This document shows positions 10,054 to 61,630 of a DNA stretch of 64,000 nucleotides, one piece after another; the first letter of the stretch is position 1, and every line of letters begins with the position of its first letter. This DNA is from Norana najaformis. Taxonomy: Eukaryota; Annelida; Clitellata; Crassiclitellata; Hormogastridae. The stretch covers positions 17,519,165 to 17,583,164 of the forward strand of contig OZ029927.1 of NCBI GenBank assembly GCA_964023275.1, given 5' to 3'. Under the pieces are notes generated by a model. The model saw only the letters and a program-made list of their open reading frames with translations. It ran no database searches and had not been told where the DNA came from. A program made the translations under genes and the position numbers.

Positions 10054-13000
10054 ATTGACAACCAAAAATAATTAACAAGTACAATTATAGTCTGTCACAT
10101 ACAGTGGTGCCAATGGGCTGACCTAAAAGGAACAAACAGTTCCGCTACTAAGGTCACCTATTTACATCATGGATTACAAAAAGGTGACAGTATAATACTG
10201 AGTAAAACAATTAATAATCTAAAATATAAGTAATTATTATAATCAATGTCATTGCATAAACCTAAACAAAACAAAAAAACACTTAACTAAGCACCAAAAT
10301 ACTTAACTAATTGCATTGAGTATATGAGATTTTAGATTTGTTTTAAACTGGTATAATGTTGGCAAGCTAGTAATAACAGTTGGCAGAGAATTACAGAATG
10401 ACGGTCCACATATTATAATACTAAACTGCCTATTAGTAGTGTGAACAGAATGTTTATGATACATATGAGATGATCGTGTATAGTGACCATGCACATCTGA
10501 ATTCATACAAAAGTATTGGCATGTGTGTATGCATGTATTTATGAATGCATGTGTGTATGTATGTATGTATGTATGTAGGTATGCATGCATTAATGCATGT
10601 GTTTATGTGTGTGTTTATGTATGTATGCATTTATGCATGTATGTGTGTACCTGTGTGTATGTATGCATGCATTTATGCATGTATGTATGTATGTATGTAT
10701 GTATGTATGTATGTATGTATGTATGTATGTATGTATGTATGTGTTTATGTAAAGAAACGAATGCTCGAACGAACGAGCGAGCGAATGAGTGAATAAAATC
10801 CTGGTTAATCGCGAGAAAAACGCTGAAAAAGCGAACTTTGAACCAAGAAGTGATGAAAAGCGCAAATGTTCGCAACTAAAGGTCACAACGGAGTTAGCGT
10901 TGGCTTCTAAACACTGAAACTGACCACGTCTCTCATTTGTTCCTGCACAGTGAGTGGCCCAACGCAAGGGCTTGAGATAATTACAATCATCACTTCTCGT
11001 TACTTAAGAGGAAATGATGCCAATTAGATAGCTTCTCGCTCCCGACCTTTCTCGTGTATACTGTACACATGCCTAACAGCAAAATTGGCTAATTAATCCT
11101 CAGTAATTTGCTAATTCGAATCGATGAAGCAAAGAAGGTTATGACCTAAGAAAGGCGCAACGGAAGAAAGGCGATCGACGATGAGAGAGAGGAAGAGACA
11201 GACAGATAGACATACGGAGACAGACAGAGACAGAGAGCTAGAGAGAGAAAGAAAGAAAGAGAGAGACATAGAGCGACAGAGAGAGAAAGAGAGACAGACA
11301 GACAGACAGAGACAAAGACAAAAGAGAATAAGACAAAGAAATAGACAGACAAAGACAGAGAGAGACAGAGGGAAAGAGAAAGAGTGAGATGGACGGAAAG
11401 ACGCAGGGACAGATGAAGGGACAGGAAGCAAGAAAGCCTAGTTGCTTGAACTAGTGAGAGGATTATTAACTGACACGTCATAAACAAGGGCGGGTCAGAA
11501 GGTCACGCCGGCCATGCCTCCCTTGCTTTGATTTTAGAAAGCCAGCGCAATGGGCAAAGAACAAAATAGTGTGCAAGGGTGGTTTAAAGAGGGCCACTCC
11601 GGCCAGGCACCCACCCCTAAACACAGATGAGAAGGACCATGGCAAGATTGGCCTCCCTTTCAATGCACCAGTCGCCAAAAAAGAACAGAGGGACCGAAAA
11701 TCCGAGAAAGTAAATCATGAATAGATATCTTGAATAGATATCTTGAATAGATATCTTGAATAGATATCTTGAATAGATATCTTGAATAGATATCTTGAAT
11801 AGATATCTTCAATAGATATCTTCAATAGATATCTTGGATAGATATCGTTCTAGATTCAACGAAAAGGTAAATATAACACAGAAAAGCCGAGAGATAACTG
11901 TAGCCGATACAGATCCTACAGTCGTCGAAAATTTGTGCTAATAACTGTATTGGCCGTATCGATTTAGTCTTTAAATTCAGTGTTGAAAATGAAACAAAGA
12001 CATACACAAATAGGCATACGGACAGAAGTACAGAAAAACAGAGAGTAGGAGATACAGACATACATAGGAATACGGACAGAAGGACAGGTAGGCAGAGAGT
12101 AGGATACAAAGACAAACAGGAATACGGCACAAGGGAAGTGAGGCAGAATAGGATACACAGGCAGACATATATGCATACGAACAGGAGGGCAGTGAGACAG
12201 ATAGTAGGAGACAAACAGAAGAGGTAGTCAAAGCCAAGGCAGACACACAGAGACAGAAAGAAAGACTGAAGACTCATACAACAGGACAGGAACAGACAGC
12301 GACAGAGACAGAATCAGTGATAAAGAAAGAGATACATTAAAAACACAAATCCCTGTGTATTCCGTGAGCTAAGTCCTTCGCGTTACACTCCACCTGGCCT
12401 AAGCAGTCTGGAATTTGTTCTTTTTGCAACAGGTGTGGAACGATTACAATCTTCGATGGAACGAGTCGGAATTCGGCACAATCAAGAGCATTCGTGTGCC
12501 AGCTGGACTTCTCTGGAAGCCAGACATCCTTATGTACAACAGGTAATTATGATTATCAACTTCTATAGCGCCGGTGTCTAATGCACGATGCATCAACCGA
12601 CGACGGATCCAGTCGCAGGATTGGCTTTGTTTCTGGACAACAGTTCAATCGGCGCAGACAACCTTTTGACAACCGGACTTGGTTCTTGACAAACAACCTG
12701 GCTCTTGCGGACTTGATTTGACTAAGCGCCAGTGACTAAGTTGGTCTCCCTGACGGAGCTTTTGTGTGACCCTGAGAAAATGGGAGATTTACATTTACAT
12801 GAGTTTACATCTTTTAATCATTTACATTTACATGAGTTTACGTCTCTTAATCATTTACATTTACATGAATTTACGTCTTTTAATCATTTACATTTACATG
12901 AGTTTACGTCTTTTAATCATTTACAATTACATGAGTTTACATCTGTTTATCACAGCGCCGATGAAGACATAGACAGTACATTTGCAACTAATGTCGTGGT

Positions 13001-16000
13001 CTCGTCCAATGGCAACTGTCTCTGGGTTCCACCTGGGCTCTTCCTGAGCACCTGTAAGATTGACATCACGTGGTTTCCCTTTGATGACCAACAGTGCAAG
13101 ATGAAGTTCGGTTCTTGGACTTACGACAGCGCCGGCATCGACCTCCAACTGATGGCCGGAACCGGGGACCTGTCCAGCTTCATCCCCAACGGAGAGTGGG
13201 AGCTCATAGGTCAGCAGAGACTTCCTTGACCTATGTTGCATGGCGACATGTTACTTGTTGATTTATGTTACGTGTTGACTTATGTTACATGTTGATTTAT
13301 GTTACCTGTTGAGTTATGCTACATGTTGACCTATTTTGCGTGTTGACTTATGCTACATGTTGACTTATGCTACATGTTGACTTATGCTACATGTTGACTT
13401 ATGCTACATGTTGACTTATGCTACATGTTGACTTATGCTACATGTTGACTTATGCTACATGTTGACTTATGCTACATGTTGACTTATGCTACATGTTGAC
13501 TTATGCTACATGTTGACTTATGTTACATGTTGATTTATGTTACCTGTTGAGTTATGCTACATGTTGACTTATGCTACATGTTGACTTATGCTACATGTTG
13601 TGTTGACTTATGCTACATGTTCTGCGTCCGTCTGATGTTACCACCTCATGTCTCGTTCTCAGTTAATGTCACCATCTCATACAACATCAAACATCATTTC
13701 AACACCATACACGTTATATGATCATCTTTATTAATTATTATTAATATTAATATACACATTCTTATTCATATTCACATTCATGAAGTCTATGGCCTAAGAC
13801 TTGGCTTGCTTCAATTGCAACCAGTATGGCTGACGTACCTCTGCCACCGGCTTGCTTCAGGCCAACAGTCCAATCGTGGCAAGCAAGCCGTCCCATGCCG
13901 TATAACCTCCTTGGCTAAACACTGTCTAACATGTTTCTCGTTATCTATTTAACGATGTATAACATTGACTGCAACTGGAAGTGGCACTTCCTTTTTATTG
14001 CCAAATTATCACGCAAGACATGAATCTGCTGTGAACGAAACGTTGCTTTCATTGCGTCGGTGGTTATACTTGCTCCGCGTGTAGCGAAATAGTTTTTCTA
14101 CATGCGAAACAGGTACCTGAGCTAAATAAACTAAACACTTCTCTTAAACAGTTATTCTTTCAAGCAGTTATCCTTTTAAACAATCCCTTTATTCAACAGT
14201 TTTCTAGTTCGTTAAAGGCGTTTCAGGAAAATAAATAATTTAATAAGAAAACTAGTGGAGGTGGTTAATTTTCTTACTAATATTTCTTTCACTGAACATT
14301 CTCTTATTGAACAAATCTCTTACTAAAACTCTCTCATCGTAGAAACTGGAAGATTACATCTTTCAAATAAATCCTGACTGATGCTACTATACGTGGTATC
14401 ACGATTTTGAGAATAACATCCAGAACTGAGAACCAAACAGGACACCCATCATGCAAACTCATCGATGCTTCACCGCTTGCAATTTCTGCATCGGCCTTTC
14501 ACTCAAAACTGAAAACATTCCTCTTTCCAGATCCTATCCTGACACCCCTTATTCCTCTGTCTCTGTCTCTGTCTCTCTCTGCTGCAATCCTAAACACCAC
14601 CCACCGTAGCTCCCACGCTGTCTCTCTGTCTGACTTTTGGACCTTGAGCTGGAACCGAACCCTTTTGCCTATCGATTTGGTTTTGACTGAGTGCCTGTGA
14701 TTAAGCTGGTCCCTTGACGTGGCTTTCGTTGGGCGCTGTAGAAATCTTGGAATTACGATTACGATTACATCTAAAATACCTTCTTCATCCGACTTTCAGC
14801 CAGCTAGCTTTTTCATACGCGTCGATCTTAGACTTAAAGGAATTTGCCAGTTGAATAAAATTTAAGTGCATTTCTTTGTAAATTGAATTAAACTAAATTT
14901 AGAAATGTAGCACGATTTTATGTCAAATTAGAAACGAATCATTTCAGGTTTTAAGGAATTTGACAAAAGTTGGGGTGAATTTCGCCTTTGAATAAAATTT
15001 AAATAAAATTTAAGTACATTGAATTAAACTGCATTTAGACTTGTAGCACTATTTTATGCCCAATTAGAAGCAAATAATTTGGGTTTTTATCATTTTTCAG
15101 GAATGCCGGCTCAGCGGAATACGTTGAGCTATGAATGCTGCCCAGAAAAGTATGTTGATGTAACGTTCACAGTTCATATCCGACGTCGAACCCTGTACTA
15201 TGGGTTCAATTTGATTATACCCTGTGTTCTCATATCGTCCATGGCCCTTCTCGCTTTCACGCTGCCACCAGATGCCGGCGAAAAAATCTCTCTCGGTGAG
15301 CACATTGTAATGTACGCAGTAATGTACATTGTAATGTAACATTTGTATACTGAAGGGTGCGCATTAATCTATTATCCTTATGCGCAACTGCCTTCTAGGC
15401 TCTGCTCCGTCCTACTTAACTTCTTTTTGTATTCCGGTTTCCTCGTTGCCTGCCCATGCCTCCCTTCGCTCAGATACCTGTGGTCTTTTGGTAGTCCCTC
15501 GCGTCCGCACTACAACTGCCCAGTCCAGGAGCTTTGCCTTTGTTGGCCCTTCCAGCTGGAACTCCCTTCCTCTTGACCTGCGGCTTCAGTTACTTAGTCT
15601 CTCTCCTACCCAGTCTCGCAAACGCCTGAAATCCTTTTTGTTTGTTCAAGTCAGGAGCGCCACTGTTTCCTAAGTGGCGCTTTATAAATGTTCGTTTACA
15701 ATTACAATTACAATTACAATTACAATTCGTAAGCGAGTCGCCAACTCACACCAGAATTACGACAATTATCTGACCCATCACCCATCCTACGAAAACCCCT
15801 ACACTTCACCCCTTGCAATCTCTGCGCATGTCTTTCACTCGAAATTGAAAACTGTCCTCTTCCACAAATCCTGTCCCCGATTCCTCTTATCTATCTTGCC
15901 AGTTCAATTCTGAACACCATTCACCGTCTGACTGCCTCATGCCTGACTTTTGGATCTTGACCCGGAACCGAATCTTGATCCTGCCCCCTATCGATTTTAT

Positions 16001-27100: not shown

Positions 27101-30100
27101 TTGCCGGCTCAAGGGCCTAAAGAAAAGGAAATGAGCACCTCCCCACACATCACTAATATATGTAGGCATACAGTGTTAGTAACTTAGAGTTAGTAATGTT
27201 AATATACACGGAAAGAAATTAAATAATTCCACAAGCACCATAATTCGAAAGATTAAGCAATAAATACTATTCACCGGAGTTCCTTTCTGAGCACCCTGTA
27301 GATGCAGTGTCGACGATATAGGCTTGAAGTGGCAATTCAAGTCCAGTTAAGGTTATGTTGTAAAATGCAGCTTTCTCTTGGGTATGGTCCAAAAGAGCAA
27401 TTTCTGATTTCCACAAAAAACTCAATAAATGAGGTAAAGCAAATTCTAGATGACGCTTTGCCACTTTGTAAATATCCACAGTCACTTTGACCTAGGTGTA
27501 AAGAAAAGAAAAACAGCTTAAGATTTTCAGAAAAAAAATCTTCTTATGAAAGAACAGAACCGCATTTTCCAGTCCACATCAAACCTAGTATGAAGAGAGA
27601 GAAGGAAAGACGATTTTAAAATGTAAATTAAACCAGGACAGAACAAAGTAACAACTCATTTTATAAACTTACATCCAGTTCACTAAAAAAGTGAGGCTGC
27701 TTCATATTTCAGATTTCAAAATCGAAAGTCCATCTTTCTACTGCACATACAGTGCCACTGTCTCACAACAAGCAAAGGACGATGCATCCGAAGGGGAAAC
27801 AGGACTAGCTCAGTGTCCTTACAATATGACCGTCTTAGCAGATGACTAAGTGCACTTTCTGCACTGACAGGCTCTGCAGTAGTGAGGCATGGTAGCTGAT
27901 TGGTTAGAGAGCCAAGCTTGTAACGTGCAGAGTACGGGTTCGAACCTCCCCTGAGACGGTTACTGTATGGGGACTTTGAGCAAGTCCTTCACTCACAATT
28001 GCTCAGTGCCACAGATTAATGCTTAGTCATTAGGTAGTGGGGCTTAATAAATGCAAAAATAAAAAAGGCTAGCACAGTTGTCCACGAAGAACATGTTCAA
28101 GTTCCTAACACTGTGACCATATGCATGGAGGATTAAACCCATACTCTCCGCATTGTAAAGCAAGGGTTCAAACAATCAGCTTTCATGCCACAAATAAAAA
28201 ATAGCATTACTGAGCGTTTGTTCTTTTACAGTTTTGAATATGAATCTAATTGTCATTTTAAATCTGAACAAATGAAGGAAACTTACTGGACGTGATGACT
28301 TTGGAACGTGCACAACCCAATTTGTGAAGCCAGATAACTGGCTACTGTTCAAGTGAACGACCTAATTGGAAAAACACAACTCAAGATGATGACCTAATTG
28401 GAAAAATACAACACAAGATGATGACCTAATTGGAAAAATAAAAAAAAAGATGATGACCTAATTGGAAAAACACAACTCAAGATGATGACCTAATTGGAAA
28501 AATACAACACAAGATGATGACCTAATTGGAAGAATACAACACAAGATGATGCAAGTTTTAAGGCTTCACTTTACACAGTCAATTTGTAGGTTAAAATTTT
28601 AAACATAACCAAACATAATTAGCTTTAAATATATTTTTAGTATGTTAAAATATATATTAAAAATTAAAATACAATATATATATGTATATAAAATTTTAAA
28701 AAAATATATAAAATATATAAATAAAATAAAATATATAAAAAATATATATTATATATAAAAATACACAGATTAATATATTAAAATAATTAGCTTTTTGATA
28801 CAGCTGCAGCTGATTTAGACGGTTCAAGCTGTTAAAATGATCCTATTTTTTAATTCAAACTAAATTAAAACAATGGCCAACTGAACTGATCTCACCTTAA
28901 ACTTCAGGTTGTTTGGCGGAATCAATCGTGCCTCGTGATCAAAACTTTTCACCTCCTTGCTGCAAAATTAATTAATAGCAAAGTCATTTTGATGAATTAC
29001 ATAATGTCACACATGACACAATTTAAAGTAATGCATGGTAAGGCAAATTATTAAGTGTCAATTTAAAACACAAGCACAAAAAAATTAAGCACATTTTAAA
29101 AACCCAAGTACTTTTTGAAAACATGTGCATACGCAGCTGATCTGGTGAAATTTCATTTTAAAAATAATAAAAAAATTGAACTGAATATTCTTAAAAGTTC
29201 ACAGCTTGATAATAAACAACACCAAGTCAACAGCCAAAAGCTTACTCACCACCTGGTCGCTCCACCTTGCATCGAACATCCACCAATCCATGGCAAGCTG
29301 TCCTACAAAACCAGCAAAACAAACCAGAATAAACTGAAAATTCTGCACAATAAATTATCCAAACAGACACCAAGGTAAGGCGATCGTAATCATAAGAGCG
29401 AGGTTTCTACAGCACCCAACAAAAGCAAAGTCATGGAAAACAGCTTATTCACAGGTGCTCAGTCAAAACAAAACTGACAGTCAGAAAGTGTTTGGTTCCA
29501 GGTCAAGATCCAGAAGTCAGGCAGGAAGAGTTGAGGTGAGGCAAGGAAATATCAGGTGAGAGAGGTCAATTTTTGGCATTGCCATTTTGAGCCTGCCGTT
29601 TGGTACAGTGTGTATGTGTGATGGTTGGCGCTGGAAATTTTGGTTAATAAACATTTTAAGCTCTTGTTATGTCTTAAAATTGTAACCTATAAATAAACTG
29701 TTTAATTATTATTATTTATTTGCAAAAATGTACAGTATGCTGCACCAAAGCTGACCAAGAGTCCGACCTTCTAAGAAACAGTTACTATATACATTACGAA
29801 CAACCATAACATTACCAGACTGAGCACACTGAAATGAAAACCAATAATTGTTCCACAACGTTTTTCAAACAGTGGTATACGACACATAATGGCTTAAATA
29901 AACAGATAAAATTACAAGATTATTATGATTTGTGCTCGTACAATAATTGTACTTATGTATTTAAAACAATCAACACATTTGCATTTTGGAATACTATGAA
30001 AAAGAGCAACTAATCCACCAAGACGCTCACAAAATCAGTTTGCACCAAATGTGTGCATACAACTGAGACAAGCAACTTTGAAAGTAAATGCAAGTCTGAA

Positions 30101-33100
30101 ACATAACTGGACAGAGAACAGACCGTATTGGTGACAGTAACCAATGCAAAATGCATTGAAACATCTTGGCTGATCTCCACTGTGTGGTAAAACCCATCAG
30201 TAACCTAAAATTGAAAGAATTCATATTGATTATAGAAATCAAGCTTCTCAATGCTAACAAAGACTTAGCCCCACCTAACGACTAGCACCACATGTGCTTC
30301 ACACAGTGCAGTGCAAACCTGGCTACTAAATAATTCTCAACTACAATAGATATTCACATAAAGACCTGCAACCTAAGAAAGCATTAAAACATAGTTCCTC
30401 ATCAAAACCAATAAGAAATAACTTCATATTTACAGTACTCGTAACCCAGTAAAGAAACAGTGGGTAAATTCAATGAAATGGTAAAACCGCCTCAGAATCA
30501 TGGTTTTGAAGTAAAAGAAACGTCCGGCAGTGCTTGCCACTGCCATATCCACAGCACCTAGCAAAATGACTGCCAATAATGCATCGCAATTGGTTTCACA
30601 CATTCTTGTGTTAGACCATTTAAAATTACAAGAGAGACTCAATATCAGATGATCTGAACTGAGATGAAAATTAGAATCATTTAACAAAAACCGACCACAA
30701 CATTTTACCAGTAGATACTCGCCTGTTTTGCCTCATAGTTCCATAATCTTTCTTTCGATGCCACCCATGTGATATTGTCATCCAGTGAAATCTTTCTGTC
30801 TTCTTTGTGTGCCTCTAAAAACTTCGGACCTGAGTTACTTTCGTAGTGATACTTAAAAGCCCTATGACAAACCGATTGATCATCCGATATCTAGCAACAA
30901 AAACAGACAAAACTCAAATAAAAAATTCATATATTTAATTTCTTATTTACTGCACAATAAGAATTTCAGTCAGACTATCAGTTGAGGGACTAGATCGCTC
31001 TGTGCACCTCTGGGCACGAGGATGCCCGTTTGCACCCCATTTGTGGCTTATTTAAGAAATTTCAACCTCGAGCTAGCACGGTCTGTACACGGGGACCTTA
31101 ACTGGCGTGGTACCCAATCAAACAGGCAGCAGTGATGAAGGATCTCACCCAATAAATTCATAAAAAATTGAGCAGGGTCAAGGCCATACGGTTGCGATAG
31201 AAAAACGTTAACATTTACATTTACATCTGTAGAACTGGCCATGGATACAACATGCACCATTTCTCAGTGCTTCTTAAACAGTTCTCTGTTATCCTGGTGC
31301 TGGCCTGGGAGCACTTCTGAGCAGACTTCTTGAATTGGCACTTTATAATTTTAGTAAATGTAATTGGACATTTATATAGTGCTGCCTCAAAAGAGAAACA
31401 ACAATATATCGAACAAGTACATAAACAAAATGCATTTTACTAGCTTAACAAAGGGAGCTTACATCTACATTTTCACTGGTAACTAGCAGCAATTTTCCTA
31501 TGCACCAAGTGCTAGCACCATAAACAATAGATATATCTTTCTCAGTAATGAGGCAGACTAAAAATTCAGCCATTGTAACAAGAAACACAGTGAAACCTCC
31601 CCAAACACAGCATTCTCTCAGTAACTACACAATAAACAAAGGTTTCTTTAAAAATTCTAACCTGATTTGTTTCTCGATCAACACAGTCAAACATAGCTCT
31701 GACAGTAGCCATGACAACCTGCTTACACCTTAGAAACAAATGAAAAAAATGTTACAGGAAAGTTATTCTAGGTCACCAATGATCACTTTAGAATTATAAT
31801 TCACAAACCAGGAAACAACTTCAATAAATAACCAAAAAATGCGTTCAAAACATTGATTACTGTCCTTCTGTGCACTTCAGAGAAGAAGAGCAATCTCTAA
31901 AGCCAACCCCAAGATGCAGCACGGGTATAAAGTGTTAGTGATGACTTAATTTTCCGTAGCCTCTACATCCGAGCAGCCAGTCCTCATACTGACCACCTAA
32001 TCTTCCCAATAGTGTATTATCAGTAAACTCTGTTTATAGATTAGTTCATCAGGGCACAAGTGGATCAGAAGTTCAGAAATGTTTTTCAGCCCTGGCTGGG
32101 ATTTCAACCCCAACCTCTGGGTTGACAGCCATGCTCACCACTAGACTATGGTGCACCCCACTTGTAAATGGCATATTGTATTGTACTGTATTGTATTTGA
32201 TAACTTATGTAGCACTTCTTACAGAATAAACTACTCAGAAGTGCTTCCAGCATGAGAACCCAGGGAAAATAAGAGAGTCTTTAAACAACGAGCTGACTGA
32301 GCTCTATCACCAACAGTGATCCTTGCACATTTTTTAACATATTTTACTCCTCTTTGAGCATTCAAAAGGCGCTATATGAATTTCCCATAATTCTAAATTA
32401 CCCATAAATAAAAAAACAAAGCCAAAGGTCACGTCTGAGCAAATACTTCTACTGGAAGACAAAAATGTCAGTATATATACTCACACACATATAAATCAGC
32501 ATATAAACTCTATCGGCCTAAAAGCTTAACAACTGATACCAAAGCCATTAAAAAGATTCATTTACTTTACAACAAAAGCATCAGAGACTTGTTTCTAATC
32601 GGCTGCCAATACTGGGCTCAAGAAAATCAGCCCTTCAAAACGTAACAGTCAAATCTATTAATCAGTTAAGCAGAAATGCTCAAAAATCGTACAACACAAA
32701 GTTAAAGCTTACCAAACATGAGCCAAGTGATCTGTCGACACCCAAGCCTTTGGAATCGACATTGTCTACAGAAAATTCAGGTTTCAAATAATAAGGGCAG
32801 TGATTTCACAATAAAACCTAACATTTATATTGAACTACATTTAAAACATGAGGTCTGGTCAGATATAGTCAGATAATAAAATTCAGCCAAAAATATTCTT
32901 TATTCATTTCAATTAAGCAAGCATGGAAGTTTCATTTTTGTTCAATCACTAATTATAAATTCAGCTGTATACAACTAACCGACGACGAAATCTGATGTTT
33001 ACAGTCAACAATCTGCAAAATTAAAACAAAAAGAAAACCCACTATGAGAAACAATTAAAAGCAATTTAATGATTAATTATAGCCAAAATAGTGTATTAAC

Positions 33101-39624: not shown

Positions 39625-41145
39625 GTTCCTCATCTCTTCCTCATCCCTCTTTCCGCTCCAGTCCCAAACATCATCATCATCATCAAGAACCATGGGCTCA
39701 GCGCCCGTAGGTGTCCGCTGCCGTCTTCACCAAGTTCTTCCATCGCTCCCTGTCCATTGCCGTGTGACTCAGCTCTTGGATTGATGCTCCTCCCCACCCG
39801 ATGATGTCATCCAGCCATTCCCTGTGAGGCCTTCCTCTTCGATTTGTCCCCTCCATCCTGCCAAACATTAGTGTTTTTATTTTCCGATCATCCTTCATTC
39901 TGCAGATATGTCCGAACAGTTTCAGCTTTCTCTTGATCAGGTTCTGCATGATGGTTTCCTTAGGGCGTATTCGTTTGTATAGCTCTATGTTTGTGACCTT
40001 TTGTGTCCAGCCTATTCCCAAAATCTTTCGATAGCACTTTCTTTCGAAAGACAGCATCCTTTGCTCTATATCCTTTGTTACCACCCAGGACTCGCATCCG
40101 TAGAGCACTCCGCTGAAGATGCACGTCTTTAGTACTTTCACCTTAGTTTCCAATTTTATCGCTTTACTTCTCCAGATTTTATCCATAGCCTTTAGTGTTG
40201 TTGCAGCCCTTGCTATCCTTGTCCATACTTCCTTTCTGCTGTCTAGGTCATACGTCGTGTTGCTCCCTAGATATGTGAACTTTTCCACATTCTCCAGTTG
40301 GTTTCCATCAATGACTAGTTTCTTTCTGTGGTCCTTTTCTCCGAATACTAGAGTTTTGGTTTTTTCGAAGTTCATGGTTAACCCATATCTCTTTCCTTCT
40401 TCATTCAGAGCTTGCGCTGTTGTTTCCAGTCGTTCCTCGTCTCTTTCGATCAAGTCAATGTCGTCAGCAAAACACAGGTTGTTGATTCCTATTCCGCTTA
40501 TTACTACCCCATCTTCTTTATCTCTTATCTTATCCAAGACTCTTTCCAATAGTATGATAAAGGAGCTTGGGGATATTGGGTCCCCTTGTCTTGTGCCTCT
40601 GCTTGTTTTGAACCAATTTCCCTTCTCGTTCCCAATCCGTACTGCCGCTGTTGCGTTTCCATTTATTTCCTTTAGCAGGCGTGTCAGTTTCTTGTCCACC
40701 CCAAATGATGCAATAGCCGCCCAAGTTATGTTCTGATCTATGCTGTCAAAAGCCTTACTGAAGTCGATGAAACAGTTATATATTGGGATGTTTTTTCTTC
40801 TCGCTTTTTCTCCTATCAGTCTCAGTGCTAGTATTTGTTGTACTGTGCTTCTATCTTTTCTGAACCCTGCCTGTTCATCTGCCATATACTCCTCTGTCTT
40901 CCCTCTTAGTCTTTCTGTCAATATTGCCATCATTACTTTTCCCAAATGACTTATTAGCGCAATCGTTCTGTAATTGCTGCAGTCCAGTGCGCTACCCTTC
41001 TTGTGCCTAACTCTTGGGTCTTGACCTGGAACCGAACACTTTTGCCTATCGATTTTGTTTTGACTAAGCGCCTGTGAATAAACTGGATCCCGCGACTTAG
41101 CTTTCGATGGGCGCTGTATAAATCTCGAGATTACGATTACGAATA
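39625..41145 (+). repeat. S3 copy split by a LINE
   Basis: 39625-39675 (TCATCTCTTCCTCATCCCTC, CCAAACATCA) is the first part of an S3 copy as at 58346-58395. The second part (TCTTGACCTGGAACCGAACA ... ATTACGATTACG) resumes at 41013-41145. The LINE at 39685-41009 lies between, and about 30 bases of S3 are lost at the junction. Confidence 0.7.
39685..41009 (-). mobile_element. 5'-truncated LINE with intact reverse transcriptase half
   Basis: An uninterrupted minus frame (stop at 39700-39698) of about 430 codons holds RT motifs: NYRTIALI, DEQAGFRKDRST, CFIDFSKAFDSID, RGTRQGDPISPSSF, the catalytic LCFADDID, and EKTKTLVF. It is followed by YGCESWVV and KCYRKILGIGW, a C-terminal module common in RTE-like and related LINEs. 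The endonuclease half is missing. The 3' end is a short GAT repeat (39670-39684). The upstream 60 codons of the same open frame come from the SINE, not the LINE. Confidence 0.9.
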
Positions 41146-42275
41146 TGGGACTCTGTGAGCAGTTTCTCACAGTTTCGCTAGGTGGCACCAGTATTCATAG
41201 TGATCTAAACAGCTCAGTTGTTGTAGAGAGGTGGATAAAGTCCAGAAAGGCAGAGAATTGTTCAGCAAGGTCAGCAAATTACTTTCTTGCTTACTTAGCT
41301 CTTAGCGGATTATGCATAACAGCGATGACACACATAACAATAAAGACTTCACTACAATAATGTTGTTCCGATGGCGTCATCGCAACATAGATGACGTCAT
41401 CTTAGGCCCTGTTGTTTCGCGTCTTGGAAACGAATTTCATTTGGAAAATCGACTTGAAAGAGAAAAGACGAAAAGTTTTTTTCGAACAGGGAATTGTCGA
41501 AAATCATCTAACAGAAAAAAGCAGAAATCTGAAGTTCGATATGAGAGCTGTTGTTGAAGACACAAATCGACCATGAATCTGATGATCGAAATGAATTTGT
41601 CATTTCGAATAGAAAATCAATGATGAGATAGATATCCGAAATTAAAAGTAAGGATTGCTTAATTTTATGATATAATTGATCAGCAATTTAAATACTAGTC
41701 GATCGACAGATTTAAAAATCTAATCAAATCTTGAAACTTTTCTAGCGCCGTACGTTATAATGCACAAAGCCTCAATCGATTGACAGTTAAGAAAAATCGC
41801 ACATTCCATTGGAACCAGTTGAGATCTCGGACCCCCCGCGAGACTTCATTCAAGAAGCCTAATCAGCCGTTGTATTACGCAAGAGGTCATACTAAGTAAG
41901 TAAGTAAGTATTTAAGTAAGTAAGTAAGTAAGTAATGCATTTGTTAACACGCTATATGTCCATCGAGTAAGCGAGGAATCGTAGGCATGGGTGAGTCACA
42001 ACAAAAGCAAGACGTACTACCTCGTTGTTTTAATTTGTCCCAGTTTCGACTTGAAACTCTTGTCACCAAAGGACAACAGAGTTTAGGCTAGTCGTGGGCC
42101 TGATATGTGCAAGTCTGATGTATTATTTAATAATTATATGGACTTTCTTAAATTTCTTAATGCAGATACGCATCTTTGGTGACGAAGAATCTGCTGAGAC
42201 GAGTTTTGAATACCATGGTTCTTCGCTGCCTATCTTTCTCTTGTACTTGTCTGTCTATGTGTGTGTTTATGTTTA
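41146..42275. other. Intergenic, no gene recognised
   Basis: 41740-41800 is S6-like (TCTAGCGCCGTACG...CAATCGATTGACAG). 41896-41934 is an AAGT tetranucleotide run. No exon is seen. Confidence 0.5.

Positions 42276-46340: not shown

Positions 46341-61630
<15,290 letters not shown>

What the first reader, a model, noticed from the sequence alone, without database searches (positions are those of the whole stretch)
28287..28552. A tandem array made of six copies of one 3' splice site (PGAP1)
The 32-bp unit, read on the coding strand, is a T-rich tract plus CCAATTAG followed by GTC. That is the exact acceptor and first codon of the PGAP1 exon at 28361. Six such sites stand in series. Use of any upstream copy would add multiples of about 32 bases, and three copies would nearly keep frame. 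With the arrays at 53.95 and 59.63 kb this suggests a local process in which 3' splice sites seed tandem duplication.
Basis: partly seen in the sequence, partly recalled or inferred. Interest (0 to 1): 0.72.

Follow-up and report, generated by a model that had tools for sequence, protein, structure and literature searches.

The report
One splice site copied six times
A short stretch of DNA that marks where an exon begins in an animal PGAP1 gene has been copied six times in a row, and similar copied exon edges sit in the neighbouring gene; the same oddity was described before in lancelets under the name 'mirage'.

Summary
In detail: six copies of CCAATTAG|GTC, 32 bp apart, end at the 3' splice site of a PGAP1 exon (minus strand, 28361-28287). 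The arrays at 53.95 and 59.63 kb also end at 3' splice sites, but of a neighbouring guanylyl cyclase gene. Two more arrays, at 51.8 kb and at 69.3-70.0 kb in the flank, repeat 5' splice sites of that gene. So exon-intron boundaries are copied, not 3' splice sites alone. The copy joined to the full exon keeps the reading frame; all five upstream PGAP1 acceptors lead to stops (+96 is exactly in frame, but the acceptor's own TAG is then read). Local splice scores do not single out the true site. This is the 'mirage' minisatellite of lancelet Adh3, globin and PGBD5 genes. Whether boundaries attract tandem duplication is open: 5 of 11 arrays hold one (expected 1.0, P 0.001, framed after the fact), but a coverage count shows no excess, and 33 other arrays show none for acceptors. 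RNA use is unknown. The species is unidentified.

The parts
28359..28551 (-). Array of six 32-bp units, each with CATCATC (branch-point-like), a T-rich tract, CCAATTAG and GTC; units 2-3 equal units 5-6, so a 96-bp block seems to have been doubled
28287..28361 (-). PGAP1 exon (75 nt, enters and leaves in phase 0) whose acceptor is the last, exon-side copy of the array
30061..30204 (-). Upstream PGAP1 exon, ends in phase 0 at CTCAGTT|GTATGC (weak donor score -0.5; its start is not settled)
53946..54182 (-). Array of four 59-bp units over the acceptor (exon starts at 53966) of a kinase-like-domain exon of the guanylyl cyclase gene; the other copies carry the exon start as VLKQVKMP or nearly so, against VLRQLKSP in the exon
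59635..60048 (-). Degenerate array of six 70-74-bp units (one interval longer) ending at the acceptor (exon starts at 59635) of the transmembrane exon of the same gene; acceptor AG kept in 3 of 6 units, the true one included. TRF rows (59644-60010) stop 9 bp short of the exon
51808..51982 (-). Array of 41-bp units over a 5' splice site (exon ends at 51978, CAATGCAG|GTCAGT); the true donor is the first, exon-side copy; GT kept in 3 of 5 units, the true one included

Best explanation
These are 'mirage' minisatellites: a segment spanning an exon-intron boundary was duplicated in tandem and then grew, by slippage or unequal exchange, into an array lying on the intron side. A tandem duplication across a boundary always leaves one copy joined to the complete exon, so the true site is the last acceptor copy or the first donor copy, and the rest become decoys inside the intron. 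In PGAP1 each 32-nt unit carries a branch-point-like ATCAT with its A 26 nt before the exon side, a T-rich tract and TAG|GTC, so the last unit could be recognised as a complete 3' splice site. If the spliceosome searches for the first AG after the branch point, the exon-side copy is chosen by branching in the last unit, probably helped by exon definition. Missed choices give stop codons and presumably nonsense-mediated decay, so the array is tolerated noise rather than a source of protein variants. Shown: anatomy, reading frames, similar local scores, more than one case. Inferred: mode of growth, use of the exon-side copy in RNA, decay of the rest.
For: Six identical acceptor cores and block doubling. 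Copies away from the exon carry coding sequence of the exon end (VLKQVKMP at 53.95 kb; the RYKYFHK codons, one of them often changed to TAA, at 69.3-70.0 kb), so there exon ends were copied into the introns and not the reverse. Five boundary arrays at 54 modelled boundaries, three acceptors and two donors, each with the frame-keeping copy next to the exon. Alternatives that end in a stop: 5 of 5 acceptors in PGAP1; at 53.95 kb 13 of 13 upstream AGs listed, the three homologous ones among them; at 51.8 kb 3 of 3 downstream donors fitting the pattern searched; 5 of 5 donors at 69.3-70.0 kb; at 59.63 kb 3 of 4 upstream AGs tried, both intact homologous ones among them. Leave-one-out scores of true sites against copies: 5.25 against 4.31, 6.50, 5.25, 4.31, 2.02 in PGAP1; 8.77 against 8.80, 9.35, 8.80 at 53.95 kb; donor 9.4 against 9.4 at +123. 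The same anatomy is described for lancelet globin genes (section 16 read) and PGBD5 (passages); the globin paper says that Adh3 data and its own RT-PCR suggest regular splicing.
Against: No RNA was available, so use of the exon-side copy is not shown. In a human BRCA1 tandem duplication across an intron-exon boundary the duplicated part was found in mRNA and gave a stop (abstract and passages), so the exon-side copy does not always win. At 59.63 kb one non-homologous AG (before 59704) would give an open 23-residue insertion. In the PGAP1 array only GTC of the exon is shared with the units, so the direction of copying is not shown there. Some modelled junctions score very low and may be misplaced (acceptors PG_g and GC_coil; donor PG_j, the exon just upstream of the array; PG_c has a much better AG 9 nt upstream).
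Confidence: 0.78

Rival explanations
1. Splice sites, or transcription through them, actively promote tandem duplication (for example through R-loops, paused polymerase or repair copying), so boundaries are hot spots.
For: Founding-unit null: 4 of 7 arrays in the window genes hold a boundary, expected 0.70-0.75, P 0.003 by simulation and 0.006 by Poisson; with the flank 5 of 11, expected 0.98, P 0.0014. A few other arrays end within 25 nt of exons, judged by eye.
Against: Test framed after seeing the arrays. Coverage null: 3.6 of 46 expected, 4 seen, P 0.49. 15.5% of 400 random intron positions have a nearby direct repeat at least as good as the weakest of the four, against 4 of 46 boundaries (microsatellites not removed from this control). 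Acceptor content of 33 other arrays is at chance.
Confidence: 0.2
2. The extra acceptors are a regulatory device: competing similar sites divert PGAP1 transcripts into unproductive splicing that lowers expression.
For: All six AGs are intact and most score alike; every upstream one gives a stop 42 or 93 nt after the junction.
Against: Units of the 59.63-kb and 51.8-kb arrays have lost AG or GT in 3 of 6 and 2 of 5 cases, so there is no sign that copies are kept as sites. Recent growth explains the intact PGAP1 copies as well.
Confidence: 0.08
3. An ordinary intronic minisatellite that by chance reached the exon edge, and the exon start moved onto its last AG.
For: Minisatellites are common here: 44 in the 264 kb of window and flank by the filter. 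In PGAP1 only three exon bases are shared with the unit.
Against: At 53.95, 51.8 and 69.3-70.0 kb the copies carry coding sequence of the exon ends, best explained by copying out of the exons.
Confidence: 0.12
4. Assembly artefact: copies created or multiplied by misassembly of reads.
For: Not tested here; no reads available.
Against: Units differ by substitutions and the array is only 193 bp, short enough for single long reads; the genome is in 17 contigs.
Confidence: 0.02

Closest known systems
'Mirage' minisatellites of lancelets (Adh3; globins BflGb6 and BflGb9; PGBD5; troponin C)
   Same: Minisatellite-like tandem duplication of intron/exon boundaries; both 5' and 3' boundaries; units of 10 to about 160 bp; many but not all units keep AG/GT; reported not to disturb splicing (Adh3 and troponin C only as cited there).
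   Different: Other genes (PGAP1 and a receptor guanylyl cyclase), five arrays in two neighbouring genes, species not identified here; length variation and RNA not examined.
Intron gain by tandem duplication of an AGGT segment (Rogers 1989 and Hellsten 2011, both only as cited in PMC4974935; potato RdRp, PMC4974935)
   Same: Tandem duplication of a segment with AG|GT; the potato case copied an intron-exon structure including putative branch site, pyrimidine tract and 3' splice site (passages).
   Different: No new intron is bounded by two copies: the modelled donor of the PGAP1 intron lies about 1.7 kb upstream at the end of another exon (30061), outside the array.
Tandem alternative acceptors such as NAGNAG (recalled, no call)
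   Same: Several AGs compete for one exon.
   Different: Spacing 32 nt, not 3; alternatives end in stops, not in one-residue changes.

Membership tests
Mirage minisatellites | Tandem repeat whose unit spans an exon-intron boundary | tested here: met
   PGAP1 acceptor and three further boundaries in the window (the one at 59635 with TRF edge 9 nt short); one in the flank
Mirage minisatellites | Both 5' and 3' boundaries can be affected | tested here: met
   Three acceptors, two donors
Mirage minisatellites | Many but not all units keep AG or GT signals | tested here: met
   6 of 6 PGAP1, 4 of 4 at 53.95 kb, 3 of 6 at 59.63 kb, 3 of 5 at 51.8 kb, 6 of 6 at 69.3-70.0 kb
Mirage minisatellites | Regular splicing of the gene is not disturbed | not testable with these tools
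   No RNA data; of the six PGAP1 acceptors only the exon-side one keeps the frame
Mirage minisatellites | Copy number varies between haplotypes or somatically | not testable with these tools
   One assembly only; identity of units 2-3 and 5-6 points to past growth
Mirage minisatellites | Host is a lancelet (all reported cases seen here) | tested here: inconclusive
   GFP family PF01353, a lancelet marker, gave no match in the own genome, but none of the 14 control genomes rang either; mollusc haemocyanin PF14830 likewise none, and no control rang
Intron gain by AGGT tandem duplication | GT of one copy and AG of the next bound a new intron | tested here: not met
   The modelled donor of the intron is in another exon 1.7 kb upstream, outside the array (its score is weak)

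The most novel reading that the evidence does not exclude
Exon-intron boundaries in this genome are hot spots at which tandem arrays are born, at both acceptors and donors, by a process tied to transcription or splicing; the spliceosome then has to pick one of several near-equal sites, and does so by branch-site choice and exon definition.
Probability: 0.17. Interest if true: 0.75.

Novelty: new member of a known kind. Interest (0 to 1): 0.45.

Why it matters
Up to six splice sites with similar local scores in series, of which one keeps the protein intact, make a natural test of how the spliceosome chooses among near-equal sites. If boundaries do attract tandem duplication, this would be a source of new introns, decoy sites and disease-type duplications.

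Tried and rejected
Rejected: that the +96 copy gives an in-frame protein variant (the TAG of the acceptor is read as stop); that the phenomenon is confined to 3' splice sites (donor arrays); that the extra donors of exon GC_E70, at multiples of 105, stay open (in frame by length, but the first retained copy carries TAA). One alternative AG, before 59704 in the 59.63-kb array, stays open and is reported against the general rule; there the upstream exon is unknown and the frame was taken from phase 1, and a further AG at -362 was not translated.

Led nowhere: PDB search with the 25-residue exon alone; Rfam and tRNA scans of the window; exon-k peptide against shuffles; a codon-usage scan for further exons, which missed 11 of the 13 complete PGAP1 exons; taxon markers. 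Own-genome searches with PF00069, PF00211 and PF16915 did not complete, so no genome-wide exon sample was made.

Papers: eight were opened. PMC3087553: section 16 read, plus passages. PMC3902484, PMC4974935, PMC2812944, PMC11839443, PMC1431707, PMC10506793: passages only. PMC2891723: abstract and outline. Not held and not seen: the Adh3 paper PMC117041, Hellsten 2011 PMC3265369, Zhuo 2007 PMC1783408 (a PubMed id guessed for the Adh3 paper was also not held). PMC7530620 was asked for with a term that was rejected and was not seen.

Rows and limits: the 54 boundaries are those I could model by homology and phase; exons of both genes are missing. Arrays were filtered at period 20 or more, TRF score 150 or more, not reducible to 1-6 bp motifs. 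The array at 59.63 kb counts as boundary-holding because a 12-nt margin was used when arrays were listed against junctions; without it the count is 4 of 11. For the 33 other arrays only one unit each was scored, and their genes are mostly unknown. The 264 kb contain 15,020 N.

Full report
What is there. The window holds two genes on the minus strand: PGAP1 (from about 39.3 kb to below 23.4 kb) and a receptor guanylyl cyclase that runs in from the flank and reaches at least 50.2 kb. Pfam confirms both: PGAP1 PF07819 at 1.3e-39 and PF24660 at 4.5e-35; Guanylate_cyc PF00211 at 8.6e-57 with a kinase-like domain; an ectodomain exon in the flank matches ANF_receptor PF01094 at 1.6e-9. I modelled 24 exons with 46 junctions in the window by homology and phase, and four more exons of the cyclase gene with 8 junctions, one in the window and three in the flank.

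The PGAP1 array. TRF gives 32 bp x 6.0 at 28359-28551. On the minus strand the core CCAATTAG|GTC stands six times, exactly 32 apart, and CCAATTAGG occurs nowhere else in the window. Units 2 and 3 equal units 5 and 6; unit 4 carries a run of T, unit 1 one C. A 96-bp block thus appears to have been doubled. Each AG is preceded by a T-rich tract and by an ATCAT whose A lies 26 nt before the exon side and which fits a loose branch-point pattern. The exon after the last copy is 28361-28287 and joins in phase 0 to the exon at 27491; the preceding modelled exon ends at 30061, also in phase 0, with a weak donor. The protein of these exons aligns to recalled human PGAP1 through this exon with one-residue gaps only, though the 25-residue peptide alone is not better than shuffles (894 of 5000).

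What the copies could do. I translated the transcript for each of the five upstream acceptors. All five meet a stop 42 or 93 nt after the junction. So none of the five can add protein to a full-length product. A position weight matrix from the other 22 acceptors scores the true site 5.25 and the copies 4.31, 6.50, 5.25, 4.31 and 2.02, so local sequence does not single out the true site.

It is not alone. The array at 53946-54182 (59 bp x 4) lies over the acceptor of a cyclase exon that starts at 53966; the other copies carry GTCCTGAAGCAG, G or T, TGAAGATGCC, coding VLKQVKMP or nearly so, next to VLRQLKSP in the exon. The array around 59.63-60.05 kb (six degenerate units, mostly 70-74 bp) ends at the acceptor of the transmembrane exon, which starts at 59635; 3 of 6 units keep the AG. 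The array at 51808-51982 (41 bp) repeats a 5' splice site, ATGCAG|GTCAGT, whose first copy is the true donor at the end of the exon coding STPMQ. In the flank, 69339-69997 repeats six times, 105 bp apart, a donor AAAT|GTAAGT (AAAC in the last) with the exon end coding RYKYFHK; the first copy is the true donor and joins in phase to the next exon. In each case the frame-keeping site is the copy next to the exon. This follows from geometry: only that copy is joined to the whole exon. Alternatives ended in stops for 13 of 13 upstream AGs listed at 53.95 kb and 3 of 3 downstream donors fitting the pattern searched at 51.8 kb, for 5 of 5 donors at 69.3-70.0 kb, and for 3 of 4 AGs tried at 59.63 kb; the fourth, a non-homologous AG before 59704, would give an open insertion of 23 residues.

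Direction of copying. Copies inside introns carry coding sequence of the exon ends at 53.95, 51.8 and 69.3-70.0 kb, so there the exon edges were copied into the introns. For PGAP1 only GTC is shared, so this is not shown there.

Is it more than chance? The repeats themselves are beyond doubt. Their place on boundaries is less clear. If each array grew from one founding unit placed at random in the two genes, 0.70-0.75 of 7 arrays in the window should hold a boundary and 4 do (P 0.003 by simulation, 0.006 by Poisson); with the flank 0.98 of 11 are expected and 5 seen (P 0.0014). This test was framed after seeing the arrays, and one of the five (59.63 kb) needs a 12-nt margin. Against it: by plain coverage 3.6 of 46 boundaries should lie in arrays and 4 do (P 0.49); 15.5% of 400 random intron positions have a nearby direct repeat as good as the weakest of the four, against 4 of 46 boundaries (microsatellites were not removed from this control); and one unit from each of 33 arrays elsewhere in the 264 kb contains acceptors no better than random windows (mean percentile 0.50; 3 of 33 at 0.9 or more) and donors slightly better (0.59; 9 of 33; KS p 0.045).

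How it most likely works. [quoted passage not shown] Under that rule the true PGAP1 acceptor is used only if branching occurs in the last unit; each unit has its own candidate. The AG of TTGAG in the last unit lies about 7 nt from the candidate and would be passed over. Exon definition would favour the copy next to the exon. This is inference; no RNA was available. A human BRCA1 duplication across an intron-exon boundary did keep the duplicated part in mRNA (abstract and passages), so the outcome is not guaranteed.

What is known. [quoted passage not shown] PMC3902484 (passages) adds PGBD5 and cites troponin C. The arrays here meet the three anatomical features tested. I therefore file them as mirages in other genes. 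All cases I saw are from lancelets. I recall, without a source here, that the lancelet Asymmetron has 34 chromosomes, which would fit 17 contigs; but a GFP family search of this genome found nothing, although an abstract in a search listing reports GFP genes in Branchiostoma and Asymmetron (PMC4911609). No control genome rang in that search, so this does not decide. If the species is not a lancelet, the phenomenon is wider than the papers that I found say; my searches for such reports were made, in one open-licence library.

Verdict. The claim of a local process seeded by 3' splice sites should be widened to exon-intron boundaries and remains unproven.

Noticed in passing
69339-69997 in window coordinates (flank, within locus L012): Six tandem copies, 105 bp apart, of a strong 5' splice site (AAAT or AAAC before GTAAGT) with the end of a guanylyl cyclase ectodomain exon; the first copy is the true donor.
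   Followed up: yes
12787-12952 and 13248-13621: A nicotinic-receptor-like exon (about 12956-13209, plus strand, ends judged by eye; Pfam Neur_chan_LBD 4.3e-25) has a 33-bp array ending 3 nt short of its start and a 17-bp array starting about 40 nt after its end; neither unit holds the junction itself.
   Followed up: partly
86793-87111 and 111334-111754 in window coordinates (flank): A 25-bp array ends about 12 nt before the likely acceptor of a long exon that looks by eye like TNRC6/GW182 (not tested); exon and array occur twice, on opposite strands, so the region seems to hold an inverted duplication.
   Followed up: no
-34569 to -34428 in window coordinates (flank): A 20-bp array with the unit core CTATTAACAG, branch-point-like, ends about 25 nt before the likely acceptor of an exon with a SOCS_box match below the curated cut-off.
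   Followed up: no
56654 in the window and 67627 in the flank: Two cyclase introns seem to start with GC instead of GT (ATCAAG|GCAAGT and CTACAG|GCAAGT), judged from frame continuity.
   Followed up: no
39701-41194: Open stretch of 498 codons on the minus strand that looks by eye like a retrotransposon reverse transcriptase, just upstream of PGAP1.
   Followed up: no
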